Shown: in pieces, positions 14,160 through 32,782 of the stretch
Numbering within the stretch: the first letter of the stretch is position 1
Layout of the letters: each line of letters begins with the position of its first letter
Source of the DNA: Spirosoma foliorum
GTDB lineage: Bacteria; Bacteroidota; Bacteroidia; Cytophagales; Spirosomataceae
Direction: 5' to 3'
DNA: 64,000 bases
Assembly: GCF_014117325.1 (NCBI RefSeq)
Contig: NZ_CP059732.1
Coordinates: 620,001 to 684,000 of the forward strand
Position numbers and translations under genes: made by a program
The notes under the pieces: model-generated
The model's database searches: none
Told to the model about the DNA's origin: nothing
The model's input: only the letters and a program-made list of their open reading frames with translations

Positions 14160-14169
14160 TTGACCGTTC

Positions 14170-14397: not shown

Positions 14398-14491
14398 ATT
14401 GTTTGCAAAAATAGGCGAGTCTACCTATAGTTGTGTCGCTATTCAATGCAAATATGTGTATACTCATAGAAGCGCAATTTCTGAGAGTAAA

Positions 14492-14534: not shown

Positions 14535-14554
14535 AGACTTGCGTACAATAGTAT

Positions 14555-14561
14555 GTTGGGT
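14555..14561 (+). other. attI-like junction: first GTTGGGT of the array
   Basis: GTTGGGT at 14555-14561 followed by GAAGCC, the same start as other cassettes (GTTGGGTGAA...), but with no R''/L''/L' half-sites before it. This is what is left of an attI-type insertion point: unique sequence to the left and cassette sequence from the G|TT cut onwards. The unique left side begins at the recombinase module. Confidence 0.6.
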
Positions 14562-14925
14562 GAAGCCAAAAAGTAGTGCTCGTTTGTGGGCTTCGTGTGA
14601 CAAGCCGCACGTCCCAACGTCAGGCTGTTTGGCTCGTTAGGTGGGTTGGGTTTGACACGAGGGTCGTCAGAGTGGGGGCACTTTTTGGGTTTCGGTCGAC
14701 ACCAGAATCGCTCCGATTAGGAAGCCCAGAGCGAGTTCGGCACGTAGCGTTTGGCAGGGCAGCCGCCCTGCTTGGTGTGCCTGAAAAAAAACAGACTCGG
14801 AATCGCACTAGCGGAACGTAGCAATGGCTTCGCGTGGATCTGAAAAGCGGTTGTGTGCGTTGTTATTCGCTTTGCGCTGCCAGCCTTCCCGGTGACAGGG
14901 AGCCCGTCCCGGTGGAAGCTTTGCA
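14562..14925 (+). repeat. Leader-module region, ORF-less first cassette
   Basis: No gene can be supported in this stretch. It holds at least four GACA...CG(C/T)CC modules, a GCAGGGC/GCCCTGC hairpin near 14755-14772 and the trailer TGACAGGGAGCCCGTCCC just before site A. Short frames here are not conserved between cassettes. Confidence 0.7.
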
Positions 14926-15012
14926 GCCCAACCAAACGAGGGTGTAAAGGTTGACGCTGCGGTTGTTGTTTTGAGTGGTCTCATCATCCATCAGCCCTCG
15001 CGGGCGTTGGGT
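14926..15012 (+). repeat. attC-like site A
   Basis: R'' GCCCAAC at 14926-14932, R' GTTGGGT at 15006-15012, 87 bp in all. L'' CGAGGG pairs with L' CCCTCG; the extra base in the L' arm is G (CA-G-CCCTCG). Confidence 0.85.
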
Positions 15013-15316
15013 GGCGGGTCAAAGCAATGCTTATTTGCCAGCGTTTCGGCGACAGGTTTCACGTCCCGCGACAGGGCGGTTTCGGCTCATTTGGCGGCTC
15101 CCGTTGACAAGCAAAACGCCCCGACAGTCGGGTTTTGACAAGTTGGGCGGGTTGGGTGCGACAGCGCAAACGCCCTGGTGGTTGCGGCTCGACAGAAATG
15201 GATTCGTTCCGTTGTTGAGCTTCGCCAATCGCCCTAAAAATCGGATTGTGCGTTTTACTCGCTCCGCGTGGGCAGGCTACCGCTGACAAGATGCTCGTCC
15301 TGTCGTAAAGTCAGCA
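15013..15316 (+). repeat. ORF-less cassette made of leader modules
   Basis: The whole interval between sites A and B is related to the A-B, I-J and J-K intervals: GACA/ACGCCCC modules, a CCCGACAGTCGGG palindrome, a GAGCTTCGC segment, and the GCTCCGCGTGGG trailer. No gene is supported. Confidence 0.7.
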
Positions 15317-15404
15317 GCCCAACCAAACAGGGGTGTAAAGGCAGGCGGCTATGTTTGGTGTTTGAAGTAGTCTCAGCGGCCATCAACCCCTGTGGTCGTT
15401 GGGT
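15317..15404 (+). repeat. attC-like site B
   Basis: R'' at 15317-15323, R' GTTGGGT at 15398-15404. L'' CAGGGGTG pairs with L' CAACCCCTG; the unpaired extra base is A. Confidence 0.85.
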
Positions 15405-15675
15405 GCGCCAGACAGGTATAAAGCAACGTATTAGTCAGGCTTCAGTCGACAGGAAACATATCTCGATAAGTAACTTTTGGGTTCATTTGCCGTCTCACGT
15501 GTGACACCAGAAGCATCCCGGTAAGGGAGTTGAAAAAAGTAAGTTTGCCACGTAACGTTCGACAAGCCAACCGCTCCAACAGGATAGCTTTGGGACTCGT
15601 GTATCGCCTTTCCGCCGACAGGTCAAACTCTTAGGTGAGTAATCAAACTACAGTTAAACCAATTACACACATTAT

Positions 15676-16419
15676 ATGAGTTTTTTCAAAAACCTTTTTG
15701 GAAAGTCTGAATCAGCTAAACCCCAATCTGAACCTACTACAAAACCAATTTCTGTAACATTTCCACCAGCGCAAACAGAAGATGAACTGTTTGCCCAATA
15801 TGGTGCACTTGGCTTTGAAAAACAGGCTGATGTTCCTACTGTTGTAGGTAACAACTCGTGGGGTGTTGACATGAACAGTGGTACAATCACATTTGGGTCA
15901 AGTCTACGGTTTCCAATTCAGGTGCTGGGTACGATCTCTCATTCCTCAAATACGTGGTTGTGGGCGTGGGCCAACGAGAAATCTGGCATTCCTGCTAACC
16001 TGCTTGAACAGGCTAACCAGCTAAAAAAATACGGTGAAACAAATGGCATTGATTTATTGCAGGTGAGTCAGTTTGACGCAGACATCAATGACCTGCATAA
16101 AATTGGTTGCATTGCTAGTGGGATGCTTGACTCAAGTTGTTATTACATCGCCGATTATGGCAAAGGGGCAATGTTAGTGACCATCAAGGCGAAAGAGTTT
16201 GAGGCAGTTCAAAAAAATACTCATTTTCTTATGATAACTACCTTCCCACAGCTTATTTCAAATTTTAATGTGGATCATCGAGCGGCTTTTACAAATTATT
16301 TGCAAGCAAAAGGCTACACAGTTAGTGAAACGGTTAATCAGGTACGTGGACAAAATGGTTCTGACTCTCTTGTAGGCGAGTTCGATGAGCAAAGTCGGCT
16401 AACTAATATAACAAGCTAA
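15676..16419 (+). CDS. DUF6882-like cassette protein
   Basis: 247 residues, no signal peptide. An N-terminal Pro/Ser/Thr-rich tail (1-30) precedes a globular domain. The segment RFPIQVLGTISHSSNTWLWAWANEKSGIP resembles the DUF6882 family, whose members read a W-x-W-[AG]-W-A-N stretch; this is a recall match only. The ATG at 15676 follows a 270-bp leader with GACA modules (15405-15675), and the stop lies 60 bp before attC-like site C, so it is a typical cassette gene. Function unknown. Confidence 0.75.
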   Translation: MSFFKNLFGKSESAKPQSEPTTKPISVTFPPAQTEDELFAQYGALGFEKQADVPTVVGNNSWGVDMNSGTITFGSSLRFPIQVLGTISHSSNTWLWAWANEKSGIPANLLEQANQLKKYGETNGIDLLQVSQFDADINDLHKIGCIASGMLDSSCYYIADYGKGAMLVTIKAKEFEAVQKNTHFLMITTFPQLISNFNVDHRAAFTNYLQAKGYTVSETVNQVRGQNGSDSLVGEFDEQSRLTNITS

Positions 16420-16478
16420 ATCGCTCCGCGTGGGCAGCCTTCCCGCGACAGGACTCACGTCCCGTCGGCAGGCGGACA

Positions 16479-16564
16479 GCCCAACCAAACAGGGGTGTAA
16501 AGGTGCAGGTGGTTCGTGTTCAGGTAAGTTTTTTAATCACCATCAGCCCCTGTGGGCGTTGGGT
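16479..16564 (+). repeat. attC-like site C
   Basis: R'' GCCCAAC 16479-16485, R' GTTGGGT 16558-16564, 86 bp. L'' CAGGGGTG pairs with L' CAGCCCCTG with one extra G. Confidence 0.85.
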
Positions 16565-16923
16565 GGCCCAAGTCCAAAAAGTGTGTTTGCCGTCGTCTCG
16601 GCGACAGGCCGCACGTCTCGAGACAGGGCGGCTCTGGCTCGTTAGGCGGTTCCGGTCGACACAAGAAACGCCGGAGTTGGCGGCTTTTTTTGGTCGCCTG
16701 CGACACAGGATACGCTTCGGGTTAGGTAAGCATAGACACAGATTTCGACCTTTATGTTAACGGGTCGCACGTCAAAATGGAAAAGTTATTGGCTTGCAAA
16801 TTGCATTCTCTGATAGGTTGACTCGGGATGGTAGACGAATTTTCATCGGTGTAACATGAAATTTGTAAAACTTACTCTAGTTGTGATTTTTTCACTACAT
16901 TTGAGCGAAAAACCACTAGTGGT
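16565..16923 (+). repeat. Leader of the RloAB-like cassette
   Basis: The first ~170 bp hold three GACA modules (GCGACAGGCCGCACGTCTC, GTCGACACAAGAAACGCC and a third near 16700). The rest, from about 16760, is AT-rich and unlike other leaders. An exact TAnnTTTG box, TACATTTG, lies at 16896-16903, 20 bp before the ATPase start. Confidence 0.6.
16896..16903 (+). promoter_or_regulatory. -7 box (TACATTTG) before the AAA ATPase gene
   Basis: Exact TAnnTTTG match 20 bp upstream of the ATG at 16924. A TTG is present only 12 bp upstream, so the -33 element is not convincing. It suggests this cassette carries its own promoter. Confidence 0.4.
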
Positions 16924-18303
16924 ATGTTAATAAGATTCACTGTAGAGAATTTCTTGTCATTTAGGGATAGGGTCTCTTTCTCTATGATCCCTGGAAAAGG
17001 CACGCTTAAACAATCTCATAAGACAAAACCTGTCAAGGGTGTTTCAACCCTTAAGGCTGCTGTAATACTAGGCGCTAATGCTTCAGGCAAATCAAACATA
17101 ATCAAAGCTCTAGACTTTGGTAAAATTTTACTACTTAGTGGTGTAAAAAGTGAACAGCCAATTAAATATCAACCCTTTAGATTAAATTCCAAATCGGTAA
17201 ATAGTAATTCTAGAATTGAATATGAATTTCAGCATAAGGGAAAAAATTACGCTTATGGTTTTGTTTTTAACTCAAGGGAGATCGTTGAAGAATGGCTTTT
17301 TGAATTAACTAGTAAATCTGAGTCTAAAATTTTTGAACGTAATATAAAACTTAGATCCATATACGATTTAGAGCCGTTGTTGAAGAAAAGTAAAAAAGAT
17401 GAACAAAGGCAGTTTTTGAATTTTATTGCCAAAAGTACGCCCAATAATCAGCTATTTTTAACTGAAATACGAACTCGAAGAGTCAAAGAGAATGTAGGAG
17501 ATATTTCAGATTTATTGAATGTTATTGATTGGTTTCAGAATTCTTTAAAAATTGTTTTTCCTGATGATAAATACAAGGAAGGAATTAAATCAGAGTTAAA
17601 AGACGACTCGAAACTACAAATCACTTTTGAAGAACTATTAAAATACTTTGATACAGGAATAAGTGGTATCTGTTTAGAGAAAGTGGAATTTGATTCTATC
17701 GAATTGCCTACTGAAATACTTGATAAAATTAAAGAAGATTTATTAGATCAAAAGACCGAAAATATTCGTCTTATTCTGCCGCTTAAGAGTAGTACTTATT
17801 TTATATCGAAGACAAAAAATAAAAATTTGTCTGTTCAAAAGTTTATGACCAAACACAACGTAGCTGGGCAAAAAAAACCAGAACTGTTCGATACACGTGA
17901 CGAATCAGATGGAACAAACAGAATAATTGATCTTATACCTTTTATAATTGATTTACTGCAAGGCGATAATGTATTCATAATAGATGAGATGGAACGCAGT
18001 CTTCATCCTAATTTAATATACGACCTATTTGATTTATTTTTAGATAAAAGCGAGAACATTAACAGTCAGTTAATTGTAGCAAGCCATGAATCAACTTTGT
18101 TGACTCAAAAGCTTTTACGAAAAGATGAAATATGGTTTGTTACTAAAGATGAAGAAGGGAATAGCCGTTTACATTCGCTTGAAGAATATAACATCCGTTT
18201 TGATAAGGAAATCAGGAAAGATTATTTACTAGGCAGGTACAAGGCTGTGCCTAGAATTGGAAATCGCAATAAGTTAACATCTTTACCTAATCAGGACAAC
18301 TAA
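16924..18303 (+). CDS. rloA: RloA-like AAA ATPase (AAA_15/OLD type)
   Basis: 459 residues of an SMC/OLD-like ATPase: N-terminal strand MLIRFTVENFLSFRDR, Walker A GANASGKSNIIKAL (about 57-65), a long helical insertion, an ESDGTNRIIDLIPF signature, Walker B NVFIIDEMERSLHP and a C-terminal HESTLL switch. Its partner RloB follows 2 bp after the stop. RloA/RloB-like pairs act in phage defence (the AbiL-type abortive systems are relatives). Base composition is clearly more AT-rich than the leader and trailer, a sign of different origin. The role in defence is inferred from family knowledge. Confidence 0.85.
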   Translation: MLIRFTVENFLSFRDRVSFSMIPGKGTLKQSHKTKPVKGVSTLKAAVILGANASGKSNIIKALDFGKILLLSGVKSEQPIKYQPFRLNSKSVNSNSRIEYEFQHKGKNYAYGFVFNSREIVEEWLFELTSKSESKIFERNIKLRSIYDLEPLLKKSKKDEQRQFLNFIAKSTPNNQLFLTEIRTRRVKENVGDISDLLNVIDWFQNSLKIVFPDDKYKEGIKSELKDDSKLQITFEELLKYFDTGISGICLEKVEFDSIELPTEILDKIKEDLLDQKTENIRLILPLKSSTYFISKTKNKNLSVQKFMTKHNVAGQKKPELFDTRDESDGTNRIIDLIPFIIDLLQGDNVFIIDEMERSLHPNLIYDLFDLFLDKSENINSQLIVASHESTLLTQKLLRKDEIWFVTKDEEGNSRLHSLEEYNIRFDKEIRKDYLLGRYKAVPRIGNRNKLTSLPNQDN

Positions 18304-18305
18304 AG

Positions 18306-18965
18306 ATGCCAAGGGAAAGAGCAGAGCTAATCAGAATAAGCGGAGTAAAAGAACGCGAAAAGATGTTTCTTTTAGCTTATGAGGGTAACGAAACAGAACC
18401 AACTTATTTCGAAGCTCTGAAAAATGATTACAGATTTAATAATGATATAATTGAAATCGTTTCCCTAAGGCGTGATAAGAGAGATACAAAAAGTGCTCCA
18501 AAATATGTGTTTGAGAATCTCCGAAAAATAAAGGATGAATATAACCTAGGAATTGATGATGAATTATGGATGATAATTGATAGGGATAGAAATAGAAACA
18601 ATATCGAAAAATATTACCAAAAATGCCAAGAAGAAACTAATTTTTTCTTGGCATTGAGTAACCCATGTTTTGAATTATGGTTATTACTGCATATTAAAGA
18701 TTTATTAGAATTTACTGAAGAAGAATTAATACAGATTACAGAAAACAGAAAGATCAGGCCAAAAGGAAGGAGAACTTACTTGAAGAAGCTGTTGAGTCAA
18801 ATTCTATCTGATGGTTACAACGAATCAAATTTACGTCCCGAAAGATTCTTACCCTATATTGAAGAAGCAGTTAGAAGAGCAAAGAGTTTAAATAATCCAC
18901 AAGAAAATTATCCTACAGGTTTGGGTACGGACATTTATAAACTCGTCGAAAAATTAATATATTGA
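18306..18965 (+). CDS. rloB: RloB-like TOPRIM-fold protein
   Basis: 219 residues. The RloB pattern is clear: YEGNETEPTYFEAL near the N-terminus (TOPRIM-like acidic motif), DDELWMIIDRDRNRNN, and the SNPCFELWLLLHI motif. Its start is 2 bp after the ATPase stop, so translation is probably coupled. The stop lies 58 bp before attC-like site D. Together with the ATPase it forms one two-gene cassette. RloB is thought to be the effector nuclease of the pair; that is family knowledge, not visible here. Confidence 0.88.
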   Translation: MPRERAELIRISGVKEREKMFLLAYEGNETEPTYFEALKNDYRFNNDIIEIVSLRRDKRDTKSAPKYVFENLRKIKDEYNLGIDDELWMIIDRDRNRNNIEKYYQKCQEETNFFLALSNPCFELWLLLHIKDLLEFTEEELIQITENRKIRPKGRRTYLKKLLSQILSDGYNESNLRPERFLPYIEEAVRRAKSLNNPQENYPTGLGTDIYKLVEKLIY

Positions 18966-19023
18966 AAATATAATGATGGGAGTTGTCGGGTGACAGGGAG
19001 CACGTCCCGAAGGAGAGCGGGCA

Positions 19024-19109
19024 GCCCAACCAAACAGGGGCGTAAAGGTGAAAGTGGCTCATGTTCAGGGCACTTGCGCCTGCTCCATCGGCCCCTGTTG
19101 GCGTTGGGT
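19024..19109 (+). repeat. attC-like site D
   Basis: R'' 19024-19030, R' GTTGGGT 19103-19109, 86 bp. L'' CAGGGGCG pairs with L' CGGCCCCTG: the usual TG/CA end has become CG/CG on both arms, a compensatory change. Confidence 0.85.
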
Positions 19110-19301
19110 GAACCAGCCAAGATGTGTTTACAAGGCGGGTTACCTGCGACAGTGGAGACGCCCTAACACGCAGACTTTGGGCTCGTTGATTGGGTTCCGG
19201 TTGACAAGCCAAGCGCCCCGGTTAAGTGGCTTGAAAGTGAGTTTGCAACCTCGTGTGCGACAAGCTAATCGCTTTTTGTACATCCCTTCGACAGATAATT
19301 T

Positions 19302-19508: not shown

Positions 19509-19565
19509 CGCTCCGCGCGGGCAGGCTACCTGTGACAAGACGCATGTCCCTCAGGAGGCTTGGCA

Positions 19566-19649
19566 GCCCAACCAAATGAGTGTGTAAAGGTTCAGGTACG
19601 CTTGTTCAGTTGAAGACTCGCCCACCATCAACACTCATGAGCGTTGGGT
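19566..19649 (+). repeat. attC-like site E
   Basis: R'' 19566-19572, R' GTTGGGT 19643-19649, 84 bp. L'' ATGAGTG(TG) pairs with L' CA-A-CACTCAT, one extra A. The L arms differ from other sites but still match each other. Confidence 0.85.
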
Positions 19650-19838
19650 GAACACAACAGCGGATAACGTAGCGGTGGGCTCTCGTACGACAGTAAGCTC
19701 GTCCCGAAGTCGGGCTGTTTGGCTCGTTGGCCGGCTTCCGGTCGACAAGGGTCACGGCTCAACATGCAAGCTTTTGGCTCATGGGTTAGCCTCGGTTGAC
19801 AAACAGCATGACTCAACAATAAACTTGAAGGAATTACT

Positions 19839-20288: not shown

Positions 20289-20354
20289 AAAGGTTCTGAT
20301 CTCCTCTGCCGTCCTTCGGGCGACAGGGAGCACGTCCCGCCGGAAAGCGGGGCA

Positions 20355-20441
20355 GCCCAACCAAACAGGGGTGTAAAGGTTGAAAGTTCGTTTGTTGTCT
20401 TGGGTGGTTTCATCATCCATCAGCCCCTGTTGGCGTTGGGT
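20355..20441 (+). repeat. attC-like site F
   Basis: R'' 20355-20361, R' GTTGGGT 20435-20441, 87 bp. L'' CAGGGGTG pairs with L' CAGCCCCTG, one extra G. Confidence 0.85.
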
Positions 20442-21077
20442 GATGCGAACAGGCTGAAAAACAACGTAGTGGCCGGGTTTCGTGTGACAACGCTCACAGC
20501 TCGTTAGGCTGATTTTTGGATTGTTTGCAAGCGTCGGTTGACACGAGAATCGCCCCGTTAGGCAAATTAATGGGTTGGTTGAAAGTAGACTTTCGGGCGA
20601 CAAAAGACTCTCTTTTATTAATATAGTGTACTGTCCCACTTTAGTTCTTACTTTTAACATTGAGCGAGAGTAACTTTAAAGATGAAAAAATTACAAGTAT
20701 TTGTATCATCCACATATAGTGATTTGTTAGAGGAGCGCCAAGCCTGTGTCGAAACCATTTTGCAGGCAGGTCACATACCCGCAGGTATGGAGTTATTTGC
20801 AGCAGGAAGTGAAACCCAGCTTGAAACGATAAAAAGATGGATTGATGCTTCTGATGTTTACATGCTACTTTTAGGTGGTAGATACGGCTCTTTAGACCCA
20901 AAGACTAAGCTGGCATATACAGAAGTCGAATATAGATACGCTATCGAAAAGAAAAAGCCCGTTTTCGCTGTGGTTATGTCAGATGCTTTTCTTGATACGA
21001 AAATAACTCAAGTTGGTAGAGCATGTATGTCGTCAAATGAAAGTGGACAGACGCGGGTGAAAAGAGAAGAGATGGTT

Positions 21078-22052
21078 TTAGCCACTTTGGGCTCGCTGAA
21101 AAATATGATTTTTCCGGCGTTGGGACAAACTTAGCTGCTTCGTTTTTTGCCGACTAGCCAAGATCTGCTCTTGACGACCCCAGTACGCATCGGCTGGCCG
21201 TACGTTGTCCAGTGATTCATGGTAGCGTTGATGATTATAATAGTCTACCCACTCCGTTAGGCGTTCTCTCAACTCATCCGGACTATAGTAGTGTTCTAAT
21301 AACAGCACGTTTTTCATGGATCGATGATACCGCTCGATCTTTCCTTGGGTCATCGGATGAAAGGGAGCGCTACGAATATGATCGATGCTTTCTCCTTTCA
21401 GATAATCCTTTAGATAGCGAGATACATAAGCCGAACCATTGTCGGAGAGCATACGAGGCCGCTGACCACTTTTCAGACTACTCGCTTTCAGAGCAGCTTG
21501 CACGGTTCGCTCTACATCTGTCGCTTGCATGCCCGGACATAATTCCCAAGCTAAGATGTACCGAGAATAATCATCCAATACCGTCGACAGATAATACCAA
21601 CCCCAGTGCTTGATCTTGAAATAGGTGAAGTCAGTCTGCCAGAGTTGATTGGGAGCCGTGGTCGGATTATAGAAGTGGTCAGCCGCTTCCATCAACCGAT
21701 AAGCAGGGGTAGTGATTAGCCCCCGACTTTTGAGAACCCGGTAAACGGTGGATTCGGAGACAAACCACTGCTCATTATCAACGATATAGCAAGCCAGTTC
21801 GCGACTGGAAAGGTCAGGTCGATCTAAAGCTAGCTCAACAATCCGATTTTTTTCGCCGATTGGTAGTTGATTCCAGATGCTTGTACGACGGCAAGGTTGA
21901 TCGGCCAAGCCATCAAAGCCAGCGCTTAAATAACGCTTATACCAGCTGTAAAAAGTAGCTCGGTTGATCCCCAGTTCCTGTAACGTGGCCTTTACACTGA
22001 TGGGTGACTGTTCGACTAAGCTTATAATCTCCATTTTCTCGGACTGAGTCAT
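21078..22052 (-). CDS. IS3-family transposase OrfB
   Basis: 324 residues. A helix-turn-helix and HTH_21-like region (about 10-95) precedes an rve integrase core with the DDE triad: Asp in LWQTDFTYFK, Asp in MLSDNGSAYV and Glu in TQGKIERYHRS. C-terminal NVRPADAYWG is usual. It starts 13 bp after OrfA ends. An A8 run near the end of OrfA could let ribosomes or polymerase shift frame and fuse the two; a shift of +1 (or -2) would be needed rather than the usual -1. Confidence 0.9.
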   Translation of the reverse strand: MTQSEKMEIISLVEQSPISVKATLQELGINRATFYSWYKRYLSAGFDGLADQPCRRTSIWNQLPIGEKNRIVELALDRPDLSSRELACYIVDNEQWFVSESTVYRVLKSRGLITTPAYRLMEAADHFYNPTTAPNQLWQTDFTYFKIKHWGWYYLSTVLDDYSRYILAWELCPGMQATDVERTVQAALKASSLKSGQRPRMLSDNGSAYVSRYLKDYLKGESIDHIRSAPFHPMTQGKIERYHRSMKNVLLLEHYYSPDELRERLTEWVDYYNHQRYHESLDNVRPADAYWGRQEQILASRQKTKQLSLSQRRKNHIFQRAQSG

Positions 22053-22065
22053 GTGATGATCGGGG

Positions 22066-22470
22066 TTAATCGTCGGCCTTAAGGCTTTTTTTTAATACCC
22101 GATTCTCTAAGCTCAGTTCGGCTACCAGCTGTTTAAGAGCCTCATTTTCGGACTTGATGGACTGCACTTCGGGAGCGGTGGCTTCTCGAGTTGTATCACC
22201 CGCCAGTCGTTTCTTACCCGCTTCGAGAAACTCTTTACTCCAGCGGTAATAAATGTTGGTGTTGAGCCCTTCCCGCCGACAGATCTCAGCTACTGACTGT
22301 TCGCCTTGCAAGCCTTCTAGCACAATGCGAATCTTTTCTTCAGCGGTGTATTGGCGTCGGGTTTGTCGCTGAATGTCTTTGATGATGGATAAAGCAGGCT
22401 TGCGCTCGGCAGAGGTGGGAGATTGCGAGGCTGTGCGCTTGGCTTTGGAGGTTTTAGCCGAATTGGACAT
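22066..22470 (-). CDS. IS3-family OrfA (helix-turn-helix)
   Basis: The start at 22470 (MSNSAKTSKAKR) is preferred over an upstream ATG at 22524 that lies close to the terminal repeat. 134 residues: a basic N-terminal tail, a HTH_Tnp_1-type segment YTAEEKIRIVLEGLQGEQSVAEICRREGLNTNIYYRWSKEFLE, and a C-terminal leucine zipper ENEALKQLVAELSLENRVLKKSL typical of IS3 OrfA. It ends in an A8 tract before OrfB. Confidence 0.85.
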   Translation of the reverse strand: MSNSAKTSKAKRTASQSPTSAERKPALSIIKDIQRQTRRQYTAEEKIRIVLEGLQGEQSVAEICRREGLNTNIYYRWSKEFLEAGKKRLAGDTTREATAPEVQSIKSENEALKQLVAELSLENRVLKKSLKADD

Positions 22471-24096: not shown

Positions 24097-24121
24097 CAGG
24101 CCGCAAAGTCAAGCTTTGACA

Positions 24122-24185
24122 GCCCAACCGTCCATGTGTGTAAATGTCTCGCTACGCTCGTCATCAGCACATGGAGATGTTGGGT
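24122..24185 (+). repeat. attC-like site G (short)
   Basis: Only 64 bp: R'' 24122-24128, R' GTTGGGT 24179-24185. L'' CCATGTG(TG) pairs with L' CA-G-CACATGG, one extra G. The centre is shorter than in other sites and the L-arm sequence is unique, but pairing is kept. Confidence 0.82.
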
Positions 24186-24379
24186 GAACTCAACAGTCTG
24201 TAATGTAGTGGTGGGCTTTCTGTCGACAAGGAGTACGGCTCGATAGGCGATCTTTTTAGCTCGTTGGTCAGTTTCGGTTGACAAAGGGTACGCCCCGATA
24301 ATTAGGCTTTAAGATGTATGGCGGCTTGGGGGCGACAGCGCAAACGCCCCTGTTTGGAAACTCGATAACAAAGACAAAA

Positions 24380-24652: not shown

Positions 24653-24715
24653 TATGTTTGGCTCCCCTGTCACCCTTCGGGCGACAGGATGCTCGCCGGT
24701 TGGGAAGGCGGGGCA

Positions 24716-24803
24716 GCCCAACCAAACAGGGGTGTAAAGGCAGGCAGATACTTTTGTTGTTTTTAGTGGTCTCAGCGGCCATCAGCCCCTGTGGTCGTTG
24801 CGT
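24716..24803 (+). repeat. attC-like site H (altered R')
   Basis: R'' 24716-24722, R' GTTGCGT 24797-24803: one base differs from GTTGGGT. L'' CAGGGGTG pairs with L' CAGCCCCTG with one extra G. 88 bp. Confidence 0.8.
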
Positions 24804-24935
24804 GACCCGGCCAAGATGGGAGTGCTAGGCGGATTACCGGCAACAGGATGCACGGCTCGACAGGTAGTTTTTAGGCTCGTTGGGCGATTTCGGTTGACAG
24901 AAAGAACGCTCTAATAAGGATAGCCATAAGTGTCT

Positions 24936-25391: not shown

Positions 25392-25452
25392 TTTCGCTCT
25401 GCGTGGGGGCGTTCCCCGTCGACAGGAAGCACGTCCCGCAGGAAAGTATGCA

Positions 25453-25539
25453 GCCCAACCAGCAAAGGGTGTAAAGGTTGACACTACGTTTGTTGTATCG
25501 AGTATTTTGCTCATCCATCAGCCCTTTGGGTCGTTGGGT
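25453..25539 (+). repeat. attC-like site I
   Basis: R'' 25453-25459, R' GTTGGGT 25533-25539, 87 bp. L'' AAAGGGTG pairs with L' CA-G-CCCTTT, one extra G. The A/T side of the arm is changed on both sides. Confidence 0.85.
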
Positions 25540-25843
25540 GGCGGGTCCAAAATAGGAATCAAAGGCGGGTTACGGCTGACAGGGGGCACGGCTCGACAGG
25601 TATTTTTGGGCTCGTTGGGCGGCTTCGGTTGACAGGCCAAACGCCCCTAAACTCGGGCTTTGACCAGTTAGGCGGCTCACTTGCGACAGCAGAAACGCCC
25701 CGATTGGGCCCGCTCGACAAAAGCGGATGCGTGGCGTTGTTGAGCTTCGCGCTCGGCCTGGAAATCGGTTCCGTGCGTTTGTGTCCGCTCCGCGTGGGGG
25801 TTGCTTCCTGCGACAGGACTCCCGTCCCGTCTTGGAGTTTGCA
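25540..25843 (+). repeat. ORF-less leader-module region before site J
   Basis: No gene. Four or five GACA modules, for example TTGACAGGCCAAACGCCCC near 25629, a GTTGGGCGG segment that could pair with the following CGCCCC, and the trailer before R''. It is homologous to the A-B and J-K intervals. Confidence 0.7.
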
Positions 25844-25951
25844 GCCCAACCTCCGCTGAGTTCGCGGGCGAACACACGCACAAGAACGCATGAATTGAAA
25901 AGCCACTTGCCAAGCTTATCTTTACTGAGCTATCAGTAGCCCCCTGTGGGA

Positions 25952-26090
25952 AGATCGTCTCATTTGTTGGTGCTCATCAACCCGTCCAACCTTCCGATTT
26001 GGCTATTGGCTATCAGTCTATGTTGATAGATTGATGCATCGAACTCGCAACTGGTGGAGCCTTAAGCTACCCCGTACATCCTACTACTTG
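25952..26090 (+). ncRNA. Candidate bridge RNA of the IS110 element
   Basis: Target-binding loop: outer stem 25952-25957/25995-26000 (AGATCG with CGATTT), inner stem GTTG/CAAC (25966-25969/25978-25981), with loop sides CTCATT (25959-25964) and TCCAACC (25985-25991). CTCATT is the complement of the right target AATGAG; TCCAACC matches the left target CCCAACC with one G-U. A second hairpin near 26058-26068 (AGC/GCT) is followed by CGTACATCC (26073-26081), which equals the element's right end at 27548-27556. Both 3' guides end in CC, the core. Limits of the RNA are not known. Confidence 0.55.
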
Positions 26091-26144
26091 TTTTTGAAAA
26101 TAGCCCGCTGATAGTAATTCGTCACCTTTTAGACCATCGCCCCG

Positions 26145-27524
26145 ATGAAAAAACAGGAGATTCCAAACTATCACGCTATGCCCATCGTCCATCAGCAGGT
26201 AGCTGGTATAGACATCGGCTCACAGTTTCATGTGGTGGCCGTCGGTGACGACCCTAAAACCGATGTCAAGCAATTCGGCGTTTCCACCAGCGAGTTATTT
26301 CGATTGGCCCGATGGCTCACCGATAACCATGTTCAACATGTAGCTTTAGAAGCTACTGGTGGGTACGAAAAACCATTGGTCAATGTGTTACAGGTCGCTG
26401 GGTTTGAGGTTCTGGTGACCGCTGGAGCCAACACCAAGAACTACCGACGCTTCAAATCGGATACATCAGATGCTATTCACATCCGTACTTTGCATAGTCT
26501 GGGCCTGCTACCACCTATTTTTCTGCCCGATGAGTTTGCTACTACTATTTGGCCTCTAGTGCGTATGCGCCGGGGGCTGATTGACAATGCCTCTAGCTAC
26601 ATTCGTCAGATTCAGAAAGCCTTACGAGCGGGCAATGTGCGGCTGGACACGGTCTTGACCGATACCACTTCCGTATCGGGTCTGCGGGTGATTGCCGCCA
26701 TTTGTGAGGGCGAGGAAGACCCCGTTAAACTGGCGGCTTTGGTTGATGCAGGCTGTAAGAAAAAGCCCACCGAGATCATCGAGTTGTTACAGGGCAACTG
26801 GAACGAGGTCATGCGTTTTGAAGTGCACTCGTGTTATCGCATCTACAAAACTTTGCAGACGGAGATGGCCGATTTAGATAAGAAACTCGACGAACATTTT
26901 GTTCAGTATACTCAGAAGTTGGCCCTACCAGCCAAAACAGAAGACCCCACCAAAGGCCGTCAGAAGCTGCGGATCTCCAAAAACACCCCGCGTATCCCCA
27001 TTGAGGTGTATGCTCACAAACTGCTGAGCGTTGATCTAAGCAACATTCCCGGCTTTGGTCGGGATGCTTTACTGGGCTTCTTAGGGGAGGTGGGCGAAGC
27101 GGTGAGCCGCTTTCACTCGGCCAAAGCGTTTGCAAAGTGGCTTGGTTTTACACCCAACAATAAATCATCGGGTGGTAAAGTACTCTCCAAGAAGACCTTG
27201 AAGAACAAGTCGGGCTTACCCAATACGTTTCGGATGGTAGCCAACTCGATTGGCAACATGAAGAAAGCGAATCCGCTGACGGCCTTTTTTCAAAGGATAG
27301 CCTACAAAGCAGGGCGGATCAAAGCGGTTACGGCCACAGGGCGGAAGGTGGCCGTGCTGGTATACAAGATGCTGACAACGGGGGAGGCTTATGATCCGGG
27401 CAAACTGGTGCGGGATGCGGATCAGTTCAGGCTGCAACAGATTCGTCTAATGAAGAAAAAAATAGTCAAATTCGGGATTACGGGTACAGATTTGGGCCTT
27501 TTTGCTAATTTAGGAGCGATCTGA
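26145..27524 (+). CDS. IS110-family transposase (DEDD, transposase_20)
   Basis: 459 residues. The RuvC-like DEDD domain holds Asp in VAGIDIGSQFHVVAV, Glu in ALEATGGYEK, and two Asp in RRFKSDTSDAIHI. The C-terminal Tnp (transposase_20) domain has NIPGFGRDALLGFLGE and the serine motif KNKSGLPNTFRMVANSIGN. This pair of domains acts with a structured bridge RNA. The gene looks intact and starts at ATG 26145 after a long non-coding left end. Confidence 0.93.
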   Translation: MKKQEIPNYHAMPIVHQQVAGIDIGSQFHVVAVGDDPKTDVKQFGVSTSELFRLARWLTDNHVQHVALEATGGYEKPLVNVLQVAGFEVLVTAGANTKNYRRFKSDTSDAIHIRTLHSLGLLPPIFLPDEFATTIWPLVRMRRGLIDNASSYIRQIQKALRAGNVRLDTVLTDTTSVSGLRVIAAICEGEEDPVKLAALVDAGCKKKPTEIIELLQGNWNEVMRFEVHSCYRIYKTLQTEMADLDKKLDEHFVQYTQKLALPAKTEDPTKGRQKLRISKNTPRIPIEVYAHKLLSVDLSNIPGFGRDALLGFLGEVGEAVSRFHSAKAFAKWLGFTPNNKSSGGKVLSKKTLKNKSGLPNTFRMVANSIGNMKKANPLTAFFQRIAYKAGRIKAVTATGRKVAVLVYKMLTTGEAYDPGKLVRDADQFRLQQIRLMKKKIVKFGITGTDLGLFANLGAI

Positions 27525-27635
27525 TAATAAGGGAGTTAGGAAGCATGCGTACATCCCAATGAGGGTGTAAAGGTCCAAACTACGTTAGTTTAATTATCTT
27601 GCGTGGCACTCCATCAACCCTCATGGGTGTTGGGT

Positions 27636-27966
27636 GAACTCAACAAGCTGTTAAAAAAAGCGTATTTGCGGGCTTCGTGCGACAACTTGCATGTTTCGTG
27701 ACAGGGTGGTTTTGGTTTATTTGCCGGGTTGGGTGCGACAGGGTGAACGCCCCAGTTGGGCAGGTTGAAAAAGTGGGCTTGCTATGTCACCTGCGACAAG
27801 CCAACCGCCCCGACAGGCGAGCCTTGGCAAGACTCGGTAGAACAAAGCGGATTCGCTACGTAGTGAAAGGCTTCGCGCTCGGCTTTAATCGGATTGGTGC
27901 GTTTTGCCCGCTCCGCGTGGGGTCGCTTTCCGGTGACAGGGAGCGCGTCTCGTGGGGAAGTTTGCA
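27636..27966 (+). repeat. ORF-less cassette between sites J and K
   Basis: No gene. It has GACA modules (for example GGTGCGACAGGGTGAACGCC near 27731 and CGACAAGCCAACCGCCCC near 27796), an internal GGGTTGGGTGCGACAG segment with an R'-like core, and the GCTCCGCGTGGGG trailer. It matches the A-B and I-J intervals closely in order. Confidence 0.7.
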
Positions 27967-28054
27967 GCCCAACCAAACAGGGGTGTAAAGGCAGGCGGCT
28001 ATGTTTGTAGTTTCAAGTGACTTTTGGGGCCATCAGCCCTCGCGGGCGTTGGGT
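27967..28054 (+). repeat. attC-like site K with mismatched L arms
   Basis: R'' 27967-27973, R' GTTGGGT 28048-28054, 88 bp. L'' is CAGGGGTG, of the site B/C/F type, but L' is CAGCCCTCG, of the site A type, so the arms pair only in part. It reads as a left half of one site joined to a right half of another. Confidence 0.75.
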
Positions 28055-28371
28055 GTTCCGAACAGCCTGAATGAGTGTTTACAGGTCTCGTGCGACAAGC
28101 TGCCCGGCTCGATAGGGGCCTTTGGGCTCACTCGGCGGCTTCCGTTGACAGGCCAACCGCCCCGACAGTGGGGCTTGGGCAAGTTCGGCGGGTCCCGGGT
28201 AACTCCAGAAACGCCCCGGTTAACGAGGTAAGCATAGCGGTTTCGCTACAGTGTCAAGCTTCGCGCTTGTTTTAAATAAAATATTTTTCCGATAAAAAGA
28301 TGTCGATTTTCTACTTGTTGTATCTGACTGTGGTCCGATAGGTTTGTGGCGGACATTAAACCGCGACAATC
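28055..28371 (+). repeat. Leader of the hydrolase/AraC cassette
   Basis: The first 170 bp contain two clear GACA modules (GTGCGACAAGCTGCCCGGCT and GTTGACAGGCCAACCGCCCC, the latter with a GCCCC/GGGGC hairpin at about 28158-28174). From about 28270 the sequence is AT-rich and unique and holds a strong promoter. Confidence 0.6.
28318..28346 (+). promoter_or_regulatory. Bacteroidota-type promoter in cassette (TTG / TAGGTTTG)
   Basis: TTG at 28318-28320 and TAGGTTTG at 28339-28346 with an 18-bp spacer, both close to consensus, 25 bp before the hydrolase ATG. This cassette appears to bring its own promoter. Confidence 0.6.
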
Positions 28372-29175
28372 ATGAAAACCGGACTTCTTTTACTGCTTAT
28401 TACGTGCCTTCTTCAAACCATTTCGCAGGCCCAGTCAAAAACCTACCTGCTGATTCATGGGGGCTGGCACGGGGCTTGGTGCTGGAAAAAGGTAGTACCC
28501 CTGCTGGAAGCCAAAGGCAATCGGGTATTGGCTATTGATTTGCCTGGTCATGGCGACGATAAAACCCCGATGGCGACCGTTACGCTTGACGATTATGTAC
28601 AAAAAATAGTGTCTGTAGTCAATACTCAAACGGGACCTGTTATTCTAGTTGGGCACTCAATGGCGGGCATTGCGATTGCTCAGGCAGCCGAGGTATTAGG
28701 TAAAGAAAAAGTGGCGAAGTTGGTATTTTTGGATGCCTTTATGCCTAAAAATGGCGAATCCGTATTTGCGTTGGCGGGAAAAGCGGGTGAGCAAAACAAA
28801 GCCGCTGGCAAACCGGAGTCGGGATCTTCATTAACGGAGAGCCTAATTCTTTCGGATGACAAAAAGACTTCGGTGATTAAGCCGGATAGGGTCGGTCAAT
28901 TGTTCTACCACGATTGCTCTGCTGACGACGTAAGCTTTGCCAAGGCACACTTATGTCCGCAGTCGATGGCCTGCCTAGGTACGCCTGTGAACGTAACGAA
29001 TGCCCGTTACGGGGCTGTTTCGAAAGTGTATATTCTCTGCACGCAGGCGAAAGACTTGGACAAAAGCAGTTTAGCACAGAACGTACCCGTCCAGAAATTG
29101 TATACTTTAGCCAGTAGTCATTCACCATTCTTTTCGATGCCTGAAAAACTGGTCGCCATTCTTGCTGAGCTATGA
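28372..29175 (+). CDS. Secreted alpha/beta hydrolase (salicylate esterase/HNL-like)
   Basis: 267 residues with a signal peptide (about 1-20, ending SQAQS). The fold resembles plant-type methylesterase/hydroxynitrile-lyase relatives: HGGWHGAWCWKKVVPLLEAKG at the N-terminus, IDLPGHGDD, the nucleophile elbow VGHSMAGIAI with the catalytic Ser, and the late His in SSHSPFFSMPE. It overlaps the AraC gene by 4 bp (ATGA), so the two are translated together. Probable ester hydrolysis in the periplasm; substrate not known. Confidence 0.85.
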   Translation: MKTGLLLLLITCLLQTISQAQSKTYLLIHGGWHGAWCWKKVVPLLEAKGNRVLAIDLPGHGDDKTPMATVTLDDYVQKIVSVVNTQTGPVILVGHSMAGIAIAQAAEVLGKEKVAKLVFLDAFMPKNGESVFALAGKAGEQNKAAGKPESGSSLTESLILSDDKKTSVIKPDRVGQLFYHDCSADDVSFAKAHLCPQSMACLGTPVNVTNARYGAVSKVYILCTQAKDLDKSSLAQNVPVQKLYTLASSHSPFFSMPEKLVAILAEL

Positions 29176-29990
29176 TTTTCCAAGAAATACTTCCTTGTCT
29201 AGCGTTAAGGCCCTTTGTCAGGAATTACCTGCTGGTTCATCTGCATGATGTTATCTTCCCCGTCAAACCTTACCCAACGCGAATCGAACAGGCACTTGTG
29301 TTTTTTGCACGGGGGTATATTGAATCGCACGATCCGCTGACAGGAAAATGGGAAAAAATTGCTCGTAATGCGCTGTTTGGTCAGCACGTTTCGCGCCTAA
29401 ATTTTCACACCTTCACGGAACCCGATTTCCTGATGTTGATGGTCATTTTTCAGCCAGGAGCGATGCATCGCCTGCTGGGGATTTCAAGCAATGAACTCAC
29501 TCAGGAATTCTGTAATGCGGAATGGGTGATTAACGCCGAATTACAGTCCGTAAACGACCAGATCGCCAATACTACTACGTATCCGGCGGTGATTGATCGG
29601 GCGGAAGAATACCTACTACGACAACTACGAACGATAAAAATTGACGCACATCCTATTGACCAAATTGGAAGCTTGTTACTACATTGTCCAACGCCCTTTT
29701 CGTTAGACTGGTTGGCGGACCAATCTAACTTAAGTCCCCGTCAGTTTGAGCGAAAATTCAACGAACGAATCGGCATCGGCCCTAAACTCTACAGCCGTAT
29801 CAGTCGATTTTACCAGGCGTTTGATTATAAAGAAAAGTACCCAACGGTTGACTGGCTCACTATAGCCATAAATTTTGGCTATACCGACTATAACCACTTA
29901 GCAAAGGATTTTAAGCAATTTACCAATGTAACACCAAACATTATCCTGCACGAGTACACCCAACGACCAGAAATTATAGTTAATCTTTAA
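29172..29990 (+). CDS. AraC-family regulator paired with the hydrolase
   Basis: 272 residues. The N-terminal domain (about 1-150) is of the DUF6597-like sensor type; the C-terminal AraC domain has two helix-turn-helix motifs, FSLDWLADQSNLSPRQFERKFNERIGIGPKLY and WLTIAINFGYTDYNHLAKDFKQFTNVTPN. It overlaps the hydrolase gene (stop TGA inside ATGA) and shares its promoter. It ends 104 bp before site L. As part of one cassette, it probably regulates its own operon. Confidence 0.88.
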   Translation: MIFQEILPCLALRPFVRNYLLVHLHDVIFPVKPYPTRIEQALVFFARGYIESHDPLTGKWEKIARNALFGQHVSRLNFHTFTEPDFLMLMVIFQPGAMHRLLGISSNELTQEFCNAEWVINAELQSVNDQIANTTTYPAVIDRAEEYLLRQLRTIKIDAHPIDQIGSLLLHCPTPFSLDWLADQSNLSPRQFERKFNERIGIGPKLYSRISRFYQAFDYKEKYPTVDWLTIAINFGYTDYNHLAKDFKQFTNVTPNIILHEYTQRPEIIVNL

Positions 29991-30093
29991 ACGACGTGAA
30001 CCTAAATCACCACAAAAGGAAGTGTAATCATTGATTGCTTCATAGTTTCAGGCTGTCTGTGGACAGGGATCACGTCCCGAAGGAAAGTTCGCA

Positions 30094-30180
30094 GCCCAAC
30101 CGGGCGAGGTTGGAAAAGTCCGAACTCTGTTCGTTTACTTAGCTGGTGTAGCGCTCCATCAGCCCTTGGGGGCGTTGGGT
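30094..30180 (+). repeat. attC-like site L (weak L pairing)
   Basis: R'' GCCCAAC 30094-30100, R' GTTGGGT 30174-30180, 87 bp. The L'' region CGAGGTTG and L' CAGCCCTTG pair imperfectly; the outer boxes are intact. Confidence 0.75.
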
Positions 30181-30365
30181 ACGTGCCCATAAAGTGCTTA
30201 CTAGGCGGTTGACGGGTGACAAGGGAATGACAAGTTAGGTTGTTGCTCATGGGCGAGCTACGTGTGACAGGCCAGCCGCTTTTATACCGAATAGGAAATA
30301 GCTTTATTGCCGTTTTAAATGGAGGAGCTTCTCTGCGACAGGAGGCACGTCCCGTGGGAGAGTTT

Positions 30366-30456
30366 GCACAACCACCAGGGGGGGGGGGGAAGGTCGAAAG
30401 TTGGGTTGTTTTAGTTAACTTGTGAGGCAATCTATCAATCCTCGCTGGTGTTGAGT
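30366..30456 (+). repeat. attC-like site M (degenerate, G12 run)
   Basis: R'' GCACAAC 30366-30372 and R' GTTGAGT 30450-30456 both carry changes. The L'' region is overrun by a G12 homopolymer at 30378-30389. The short cassette before it (30181-30365) has no ORF. The site is recognisable by position and the flanking trailer. Confidence 0.6.
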
Positions 30457-30632
30457 ACGTCAGACAAGTATAAAAAAACGTGTGTTTGTTCGCTCAGGTG
30501 CCAGGCCTTGGGGCTCGTTGGGCGGCTTCAGTTGGCAAGTCAAACGCCTAAGTTAGCCAGCTAAAAGGTGCATATGCTACGTTTTGTACGACAGGCTAAC
30601 CGCTTGTACTTCGACAAAGTATGTTCGAGTAA

Positions 30633-30965
30633 ATGGATAAAAAACGGATTTTAAAGGCGTTGTTTATTGGTTTTATTTGTCTCATCATTGTGACAAACGT
30701 CGTCCGTTTAGTGGTTGATTATTATACTCCTTCTTTTCTCTTCGAGTTGATTGACCAAGCAAAAGCCGATAAAGCCTTGGTGGAGTATATAGGGGATTAT
30801 AAAGAGTATAGATTTTCGTATACATCGCCGAATCGAGCTAAGTTACGTTTTGAGCTGTCAATTATTGGCGACGATAGCACACTCACATATGAAGGCCAAG
30901 CCGCTAAGATTTCAGAAAGGCAGTGGAAGATTGAACAAATTAAATCAACTGTATGGGCGCCTTAA
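30633..30965 (+). CDS. Membrane-anchored small cassette protein
   Basis: 110 residues: cytoplasmic MDKKRILK, one transmembrane helix (about 9-28), and a beta-rich extracytoplasmic domain (about 45-110) with ALVEYIGDYKEYRFSYTSPNRAKLRFELSIIGDDSTLTYEGQAAK. The layout recalls Coa1/Tim21-like small membrane proteins, but this is only a resemblance in order. It follows a GACA leader and ends 66 bp before site N. Confidence 0.6.
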   Translation: MDKKRILKALFIGFICLIIVTNVVRLVVDYYTPSFLFELIDQAKADKALVEYIGDYKEYRFSYTSPNRAKLRFELSIIGDDSTLTYEGQAAKISERQWKIEQIKSTVWAP

Positions 30966-31031
30966 TCTATGATTTATAGGGGCGGTTTGGTTTGCCAGTA
31001 ATATCAAAAACGTCCCCAGGGAAAGTTGGCA

Positions 31032-31117
31032 GCCCAACCAAATGAGTTTATAAAGTTGAAGGTAACGCATATAAAGCGAGCTAGCCTGCATATCATCAAC
31101 CCTTTTGGGTATTGGCT
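31032..31117 (+). repeat. attC-like site N (degenerate R')
   Basis: R'' 31032-31038 is intact, but R' reads ATTGGCT (31111-31117). L'' ATGAGTTTA and L' CAACCCTTTT pair poorly. 86 bp. Confidence 0.65.
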
Positions 31118-31268
31118 GAAGCAAACAACAGATAATGTAGTGGTTAGGTCGTGTGCGATGGATCGTTCGTCCCAACCGAGTAGCTTTTGGCTCATTAGGC
31201 CGCGTCCGTATGACATATAAACCCTCAGACAGTCCACATTTACAAGTTAGTGAAGACAAGTTTAAACA

Positions 31269-31610
31269 ATGACAACTACCTTATTCCGACCTGTTAGTAA
31301 AAAAGAGTTAGACCTGATTGAACAGTCTAACTGGACAAAATTTCCACCTCGCTTACTTGAACAACCTATTTTCTACCCAGTCACTAACATCGAATACGCC
31401 CGACAAATAACAGTTGAATGGAATGTGCCAGCTTACGGCAACGGGTACGTAACCAAGTTTGACGTTGATAGTGAATACCTGAAAAAGTATAATATAGAAA
31501 ATGTGGGAGGGCCTATTCATAATGAATTGTGGGTCCCCTCTGAAGAGCTTGAGGAGTTCAATAGCCACATAGTCGGTCCAATTGAAGTAATCGAATCTTA
31601 CGAAAAATAG
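31269..31610 (+). CDS. ADP-ribosylation/crystallin J1-like small protein
   Basis: 113 residues with the segments LFRPVSKKELDLIEQSNWTKFPPRL, QPIFYPVTNIEYARQITVEWN and the C-terminal GGPIHNELWVPSEELEEFNSHIVGPIEVI. This is the pattern of a small bacterial family usually labelled ADP-ribosylation/crystallin J1, which looks like a minimal ADP-ribosyltransferase fold. The name is by recall; catalytic residues cannot be assigned. It lies between sites N and O in cassette orientation and ends 51 bp before R'' of site O. Confidence 0.7.
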   Translation: MTTTLFRPVSKKELDLIEQSNWTKFPPRLLEQPIFYPVTNIEYARQITVEWNVPAYGNGYVTKFDVDSEYLKKYNIENVGGPIHNELWVPSEELEEFNSHIVGPIEVIESYEK

Positions 31611-31660
31611 GCAAGAGCAGGTCTCGTGCGACGGGAGCCTCGCCGGTTGGTAGGTTTGCA

Positions 31661-31700
31661 GCCCAACCAAACGAGGTTTTAAAGGTTAAAGTACGGTTTT
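31661..31700 (+). repeat. attC-like site O, right half missing
   Basis: R'' GCCCAAC at 31661-31667 and L''-like AAACGAGG followed by TTTTAAAGG, but no L'/R' pair is found in the next 150 bp. It marks the last recognisable site of the array. Confidence 0.6.
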
Positions 31701-31842
31701 AGTTCTGCACTCACTTGGAAATAATCTACGGTGGACTGCCTTCTGACAGTTTGTTACTCGGCCAATACAACATTTCCGTTTTGGCTAAATAGTAGTCCGG
31801 TTAGGCTAAATCACCATTGCGATTTGTTCCGAGTTTTGAGCC

Positions 31843-32778: not shown

Positions 32779-32782
32779 CCAG

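What the first reader, a model, noticed from the sequence alone, without database searches (positions are those of the whole stretch)
14555..31667. Integron-like cassette array whose attC-like arms covary, in a Bacteroidota chromosome
Fifteen sites share R'' GCCCAAC and R' GTTGGGT, matching RYYYAAC and GTTRRRY. Between these boxes, six L-arm pairs occur: CGAGGG/CCCTCG, CAGGGG/CCCCTG, ATGAGTG/CACTCAT, CCATGTG/CACATGG, AAAGGG/CCCTTT and ATGAGGG/CCCTCAT. Site D changes TG/CA to CG/CG on both arms. L' always carries one extra G or A next to CA, like the extrahelical base of attC. Genes are all on +, ending just before sites. Conserved pairing with changing sequence is what selection on a folded single-stranded attC gives. 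Full integrons are rarely described in this phylum.
Basis: partly seen in the sequence, partly recalled or inferred. Interest (0 to 1): 0.95.

Follow-up and report, generated by a model that had tools for sequence, protein, structure and literature searches.

The report
Spirosoma integron lacking the integron integrase
In Spirosoma bacteria and close relatives, rows of gene cassettes separated by DNA sites that are predicted to fold into hairpins lie downstream of a recombinase gene that lacks the extra domain of known integron integrases, and the cassettes differ between close relatives and break at the sites; that recombinase likely captures and shuffles them, which would be an integron run by a different kind of enzyme.

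Summary
The window carries 14 attC-like sites plus a half site (14.9-31.7 kb). Such sites occur in 29 of 36 genus genomes by exact pattern (reversed-pattern control 0) and in 52 of 200 family genomes by covariance model. In 138 sites chosen by R boxes alone, inner arms pair in 94.7% of cells against 65.8% shuffled. Two close relatives share recombinase, attI and right flank but carry mostly different cassettes; the breaks at attI and at the end of their one shared cassette fall at GTTGGGTG. Of 19 loci fetched for the recombinase, 17 have sites downstream on its strand. The recombinase lacks the patch III/I2 insertion (spacing test: 18 of 18 measured) and scores under the IntI cut-off; no genus genome (0 of 36) has an IntI over it. 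So it works like an integron but fails a defining test of IntI integrons. Whether it descends from IntI is unresolved. The window's recombinase gene has an in-frame stop and its distal sites are decayed, so this copy may be inactive. There is no recombination assay.

The parts
12963..14159 (+). tyrosine recombinase gene; ATG at 12963, in-frame TGA at 13062-13064, open frame 13134-14159 (341 aa) with SAM-like and catalytic domains
   Evidence: PF00589 E 1.1e-39, PF13495 E 2.9e-13; stop codon; most of the listed closest homologs are about 390-400 aa
14492..14534 (.). perfect 11-bp inverted repeat just upstream of the attI-like site (arms 14492-14502 and 14524-14534)
   Evidence: sequence; inverted repeats of other sequence seen by eye at the same place in relatives
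14539..14562 (+). attI-like site TTGCGTACAATAGTAT|GTTGGGTG; array begins at GTTGGGTG (14555)
   Evidence: motif at 346-396 bp (one at 807) after the recombinase in 20 of 29 loci; crossover point
14924..15013 (+). attC-like site 1 (CGAGGG/CCCTCG)
15315..15405 (+). attC-like site 2 (CAGGGG/CCCCTG)
16477..16565 (+). attC-like site 3 (CAGGGG/CCCCTG)
19022..19110 (+). attC-like site 4 (double change to CG/CG)
19564..19650 (+). attC-like site 5 (ATGAGTG/CACTCAT)
20353..20442 (+). attC-like site 6 (CAGGGG/CCCCTG)
24120..24186 (+). short attC-like site 7 (CCATGTG/CACATGG)
24714..24804 (+). attC-like site 8 (R' is GTTGCGT)
25451..25540 (+). attC-like site 9 (AAAGGG/CCCTTT)
25842..27636 (+). attC-like site 10 (ATGAGGG/CCCTCAT), split between R'' and L'' by an IS110-family element (transposase 26145-27524)
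27965..28055 (+). hybrid attC-like site 11 (CAGGGG/CCCTCG)
30092..30181 (+). attC-like site 12
30366..30458 (+). decayed attC-like site 13
   Evidence: not recovered by the model
31030..31118 (+). decayed attC-like site 14 (R' is ATTGGCT)
31659..31700 (+). distal half site, R''-L'' only
15676..16419 (+). cassette gene, DUF6882
16924..18965 (+). two-gene cassette, AAA ATPase and RloB-like; resembles the AbiL defence pair (assignment inferred)
20682..24096 (+). cassette region with DUF4062 gene interrupted by an insertion sequence (21078-22524, -) and a PD-(D/E)XK (Rpn-type) gene 23251-24096
28372..29990 (+). two-gene cassette, alpha/beta hydrolase and AraC-type regulator

Best explanation
It is a chromosomal integron-like gene-capture system of Spirosoma and relatives, in which the neighbouring patch-less tyrosine recombinase likely inserts and excises gene cassettes by joining an attI-like site to cassette sites that are predicted to act as folded single strands. 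Shown by the sequences: recombinase, attI-like site and array in that order on one strand; gene stops 40-101 bp before the next site in 59 of 70 cassettes with an ORF on the site strand; L arms that covary; cassette differences between close relatives; cassettes found both at attI and inside arrays, with breaks at GTTGGGTG. Inferred: that this recombinase, not another, does it; that the substrate is a hairpin; that strand exchange is single and resolved by replication as in integrons. The recombinase has no patch III/I2 insertion, so recognition of the hairpin would rest on other parts of the protein, perhaps the conserved N-terminal region of about 95 residues (untested). The window's own copy is probably inactive or weakened (in-frame stop in the N-terminal region, decayed distal sites).
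For: Sites: exact pattern in 29 of 36 genus genomes, reversed control 0 in all 36; model R1 finds sites in 52 of 200 family genomes, 9 of 36 genera, and 266 sites in 41 loci, which include nearly all of those it was built from. Covariation: core L pairs Watson-Crick 0.947 against 0.658 with L' shuffled, largest of 2000 shuffles 0.709; 208 cells changed on both sides against 71.2 shuffled and 1-10 in slid structures. Linkage: of 19 loci fetched because of the recombinase and holding its C-terminal end, 17 have sites downstream on the same strand; 27 of 28 genomes with the recombinase at E <= 1e-110 are among the 52 with sites, against 25 of 172 without it (Fisher 5.9e-18, not corrected for kinship, the two draws taken to be the same). 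attI-like motif in 20 of 29 recombinase loci. Mobility: G072 and G037 share recombinase plus attI at 94.7% up to GTTGGGTG, then differ, share one cassette at 94%, differ again, and share the right flank. One cassette lies at an attI-like motif in G012 and mid-array in G018 (92.5%), another in both positions in G032 (98.6%). Of 88 inter-site segments the longest ATG ORF of at least 60 aa is on the site strand in 70, opposite in 3, absent in 15. IS110-family ends follow the R'' box: without requiring that box, 13 of 14 element-like ends in the 41 loci lie after GCCCAAC and the 14th after ACCCAAC.
Against: No experiment. Of 138 sites 9 have two or more mismatched core L pairs and 13 one, and in 26 (top) or 24 (bottom) the predicted fold lacks most of the stem. 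Two of the five measures are weak (further pair types reached by 95 of 500 shuffles, pairs with double change by 13 of 500). 25 of 52 site-bearing genomes lack the recombinase at the threshold used, 2 of 19 recombinase loci have no site found, and 9 of 29 lack the attI-like motif. The attI-like motif of G012 has no recombinase in the 13 kb fetched. In the G072/G037 pair the right flank resumes 31 bp past the last R' box in G072, not at GTTGGGTG, and the left end of the shared stretch runs into the preceding site. Papers hold the I2/patch III insertion necessary (passages). Of the 10 junction pairs with downstream-only homology, 7 lie at 0.80-0.84 near the 0.80 threshold; the 120 upstream-only pairs mostly reflect similarity among sites and are not evidence.
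Confidence: 0.84

Rival explanations
1. A canonical integron integrase (IntI), elsewhere in the genome or formerly present, built these arrays and the neighbouring recombinase is incidental.
For: 25 of 52 site-bearing genomes lack the recombinase at E <= 1e-110. Canonical IntI exists in the wider phylum, over cut-off in 105 of 395 genomes.
Against: IntI over the family cut-off in 0 of 36 genus genomes (its 14 control genomes also gave none, so that run has no positive control, but the same model found matches). The linkage of sites to the patch-less recombinase (17 of 19 loci) would be unexplained.
Confidence: 0.06
2. The recombinase exchanges ordinary double-stranded core sites (GTTGGGT), and the arm pairing serves something else, such as a transcript hairpin or terminator.
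For: The R' box is the crossover point and is also present alone at attI. The enzyme is Xer-like in lacking the patch and nearest in fold to XerA; folding energies of both strands are similar.
Against: Double-strand recognition does not need L'' and L' to covary through twelve fully matched sequence types. A terminator role would not by itself place crossovers there.
Confidence: 0.1
3. A non-mobile array grown by duplication and homologous recombination among repeats.
For: Hybrid sites with arms of two types and 55-nt repeats shared between cassettes suggest that repeat recombination occurs.
Against: Breaks fall at GTTGGGTG with unrelated sequence beyond it, also at attI, which has no R'' or L''. 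Cassette proteins are mostly unrelated to each other (75 aligned, mean column identity 6%), though six are PDDEXK_2 members.
Confidence: 0.04
4. Housekeeping XerC/XerD mobilise the cassettes.
For: Two recombinases of this genome group with E. coli XerC/XerD, and Xer enzymes lack the patch too (2 measured).
Against: Sites and attI-like motifs track the dedicated recombinase. The spread of xer genes in relatives with and without arrays was not tested.
Confidence: 0.03

Closest known systems
Sedentary chromosomal integrons (IntI, attI, attC)
   Same: Recombinase, attI-like site, tandem cassettes with genes mostly in one orientation ending just before a site, RYYYAAC/GTTRRRY boxes, covarying L arms, crossover at the R' box, mostly unknown genes.
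   Different: Recombinase lacks the patch III/I2 insertion and scores 194.7 against a cut-off of 265. It points the same way as the cassettes. A conserved unpaired purine is on the R'-L' arm.
Xer-type simple tyrosine recombinases (XerA, XerC/D)
   Different: Adjacent to an attI-like site and a cassette array; extra conserved N-terminal region; its own clade; under the XerC and XerD cut-offs.
Integron-like subgroup of simple tyrosine recombinases (Smyshlyaev 2021, PMC8138268, passages)
   Different: The passages seen do not tie a patch-less member to a cassette array.
IS1111-attC group insertion sequences (PMC11187229, passages)
   Same: Elements of the IS110/IS1111 kind that target one end of cassette sites.
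   Different: Here the target is the point after the R'' box of these sites; short elements of about 100 bp at the same point are also seen (8 of 17).

Membership tests
Integron (IntI-defined) | IntI with the patch III / I2 additional domain | tested here: not met
   GKG-to-HxxRH spacing 66-71 in the 18 of 20 family rows where both motifs were found, 107 in 13 of 13 IntI rows, 69 and 73 in the 2 of 4 Xer rows measured; alignment; 194.7 bits under cut-off 265. Definition from passages of PMC9668308.
Integron (IntI-defined) | attI site next to the integrase gene | tested here: met
   motif in 20 of 29 loci, including the window; function not tested
Integron (IntI-defined) | array of attC sites with R''-L''...L'-R' imperfect inverted repeats conserved in structure, not sequence | tested here: met
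Integron (IntI-defined) | extrahelical bases on the R''-L'' arm | tested here: inconclusive
   One unpaired base lies on the R'-L' arm (A 79, G 56, T 2, C 1 of 138); a conserved AAA next to the stem on the R''-L'' side may also be unpaired (alignment).
Integron (IntI-defined) | cassettes gained, lost and moved, crossover in R' | tested here: met
   by comparison of genomes only
Integron (IntI-defined) | recombination of the folded single strand, shown by assay | not testable with these tools
   needs a bench assay
Integron (IntI-defined) | recombinase inside the IntI clade | tested here: inconclusive
   Family is its own clade 100/100 among patch-less relatives, IntI a separate clade 100/99, but a tree holding family and IntI together is not rejected, AU p 0.561 on a quick tree.
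XerC/XerD dimer resolvase | scores over the XerC or XerD family cut-off | tested here: not met
   186.5 and 167.9 bits against 335.15 and 329.6

The most novel reading that the evidence does not exclude
Single-strand cassette capture was invented twice: a Xer-like recombinase of Spirosoma and relatives, with no patch III/I2 helix, independently evolved or took over an integron, reading a mirror-arranged hairpin with a different part of the protein.
Probability: 0.35. Interest if true: 0.95.

Novelty: new variant of a known kind. Interest (0 to 1): 0.87.

Why it matters
The I2 helix (patch III region) is taken to be the step that turned a Xer-like enzyme into a single-strand cassette recombinase (passages of PMC7790495). 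A working integron without it would show that the step is not required and give a natural comparison for how integrons arose. It would also add a widespread gene-capture system in a family where no IntI was found (0 of 36 genus genomes). Surveys that recognise complete integrons by IntI (recalled) would at most list these as site clusters without an integrase.

Tried and rejected
Rfam at gathering threshold: no match in the window. Arrays around more distant, patch-less relatives of the class: 29 such loci were obtained, regions around 20 of them fetched; no RYYYAAC/GTTRRRY array there, and apart from A/T-rich words no recurrent inverted-repeat arm (that second scan also gave nothing for the true arrays in L039, L088 and L100, so it is weak). 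The N-terminal region of the recombinase: no Pfam family above noise, no convincing solved relative (best E 0.035 to penicillin acylase, judged chance); it was not modelled alone, and a recalled resemblance to the HARP domain found no support. The AlphaFold model has pTM 0.48, so its matches were used only to name the fold. Independent origin from IntI: not shown (rows dropped before that test: two other recombinases, L144 and five near-identical IntI; one search left out the two other recombinases; both cut each protein to its last 330 residues). Which strand folds: top-strand energy is lower in 88 and bottom in 48 of 138, too small a difference to decide, and wobble counts do not separate them. 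The longest ORFs after the IS-like ends in L047 and L091 are not transposases, in keeping with short elements there. The searches used strict filters and scored at most 21 or 11 candidates a genome, so site counts per genome are lower bounds, and weak or differently built sites outside the family would be missed. IntegronFinder could not be run, so I do not know whether it already calls these sites. 'Not in print' rests and 99 of an open-access library only; Spirosoma plus integron gave three papers with one mention of each word (listing seen only).
Full report
Observation. GCCCAAC is enriched (32 against 8.87 expected), and CAGCCCAACC-N50-79-GTTGGGTG occurs 8 times in the whole 8.85-Mb genome, all here, with 0 for the reversed pattern. 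I count 13 uninterrupted sites, one site split by an IS110 element, and one distal half site; 11 of these 15 have an exact R' GTTGGGT and 14 an exact R''.

A tyrosine recombinase (PF00589 E 1.1e-39, PF13495) ends 395 bp before a lone GTTGGGTG at 14555, preceded by TTGCGTACAATAGTAT. In 20 of 29 recombinase loci such a motif lies 346-396 bp (once 807) after the recombinase. This is the anatomy of an attI site. The first 300 bp after it are mostly unlike between loci; a BLAST of 20 of them at E 1e-10 gave short partial matches for 7 pairs.

Distribution. The exact pattern is found in 29 of 36 genomes of the genus, control 0. The genus is Spirosoma by the names given to close recombinases. A covariance model from 138 sites finds sites in 52 of 200 family genomes and 9 of 36 genera. 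In a draw of 390 genomes of the order it finds 27, all in the own family. So this site type is confined to the family as far as this model reaches.

Structure. The 138 sites were chosen by their R boxes alone, so the L arms are a fair test. Core L pairs are Watson-Crick in 94.7% of cells, 65.8% after shuffling L' among sites, never above 70.9% in 2000 shuffles. Cells changed on both sides number 208 against 71.2 shuffled and 1-10 in slid structures; two of the five measures of that call are weak. R-box pairs are constant by selection and say nothing. 116 of 138 sites have no mismatch in the six core pairs (wobble allowed), 13 have one, 9 have two or more. Both strands fold below shuffles (mean z -1.64 and -1.60), and the predicted fold holds at least 60% of the R and L pairs in 112 (top) and 114 (bottom) of 138.

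Cassettes. Of 88 inter-site segments (150-3000 bp) in 13 loci, 70 have their longest ATG ORF (at least 60 aa) on the site strand and 3 on the other; 15 have none that long. The stop codon is 40-101 bp before the next R'' in 59 of those 70. In 75 cassette proteins 26 Pfam families are matched, 23 of the 25 shown by one member each; the commonest is PDDEXK_2 with 6. The window's AAA/RloB pair probably accounts for the AbiLi and AbiLii hits among the 75 (the output does not name the member, so this is inferred).

Mobility. G072 and G037 are the best case: recombinase and attI 94.7% alike, the last 70 bases before GTTGGGTG identical, and unrelated sequence right after it. One shared cassette (94%) ends in the same GTTGGGTG with unrelated sequence after it. 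Then 8.6 kb of right flank are shared. That flank resumes 31 bp past the last R' box in G072 and not at GTTGGGTG, and the left end of the shared stretch runs into the preceding site, so only two of the four break points are exact. Elsewhere one cassette is first at an attI-like motif in G012 (no recombinase in the 13 kb fetched) and inside an array in G018 (92.5%), and one is in both positions in G032 (98.6%). In 197 junctions, 10 pairs have homology downstream but not upstream, 7 of them with attI on one side; three are strong (0.91-1.00), seven lie at 0.80-0.84; no pair is conserved on both sides. The crossover is thus in GTTGGGT, as in integrons.

Recombinase. One search fetched 20 loci because of the recombinase; 19 hold its C-terminal end (L105 does not), and in 17 of these sites follow downstream on the same strand (L102 and L103 are the misses). 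27 of 28 recombinase genomes carry sites (the miss, G067, has a partial gene with a stop at a contig end). It lacks patch III: the GKG-to-HxxRH distance is 66-71 in the 18 of 20 family rows measured and 107 in all 13 IntI rows, and it scores 194.7 bits on the integron integrase model, cut-off 265. No genus genome has an IntI over that cut-off (0 of 36), while 105 of 395 phylum genomes do. In the tree the family is one clade among patch-less Bacteroidia recombinases, IntI another, but a joint clade is not rejected (p 0.561), so loss of the patch and independent origin both stay open.

Literature (passages only). PMC9668308 calls the patch III domain a defining feature of IntI, necessary for integron recombination. 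PMC7790495 says the I2 helix docks the extrahelical bases and impedes the second strand exchange. PMC2727003 defines extrahelical bases as lying on the R''-L'' arm and shows that moving them to the other arm moves the crossover to R''. Here one conserved unpaired purine is on the R'-L' arm and the crossover is in R', so the strand code differs or other unpaired bases (the AAA next to the stem) set it. [quoted passage not shown] PMC8618304 lists Bacteroidota among integron phyla.

Insertion sequences. IS110-family ends follow CAGCCCAAC at the same point in 17 places of the 41 array loci (a pattern that demands this box). Without demanding it, 13 of 14 element-like ends lie after GCCCAAC and the other after ACCCAAC. 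Transposases of this kind were confirmed by profile in the window, L054 and L098 and by tblastn also in L094 and L099. In 8 of the 17 the site resumes after about 100 bp, so these are short elements. This parallels the IS1111-attC group (passages of PMC11187229).

Verdict. It works like an integron with high likelihood. It is not a member of the IntI-defined family on the one feature held to be essential. The window's own copy carries a TGA in the N-terminal region and decayed distal sites, so activity should be tested with an intact relative.

Noticed in passing
14160-31843, also L039, L040, L041, L088: Non-coding cassette parts are filled with about 55-nt repeats of the form GGCTTCGGTYGACA-N6-ACGCCCCGACAG, nearly all on one strand (32 of 36 + hits and 1 of 5 - hits in the window lie in the array); none found in L104 of another genus. 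Function unexplained.
   Followed up: partly
14492-14534 and the attI regions listed: An inverted repeat of changing sequence lies just upstream of the attI-like site in the window and, by eye, in relatives; it may be a terminator or an accessory element.
   Followed up: partly
25842-27553 and 16 further places in array loci: IS110-family elements and short derivatives of about 100 bp are inserted at the same point after the R'' box, a likely target-specific group.
   Followed up: partly
L053 2350 and 4987, L045 667, L039 10598, L052 8428, window 27965: Hybrid sites whose L'' and L' arms belong to different types, suggesting recombination inside the loop between sites.
   Followed up: no
21078-22524: Insertion sequence with rve and HTH_Tnp_1 proteins on the minus strand interrupts a DUF4062 cassette gene.
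   Followed up: no
33880-34010: The 55-nt repeat type seems to continue beyond the last half site (by eye), so the dehydrogenase and AraC genes (31843-33691) may be an old cassette that lost its site.
   Followed up: no
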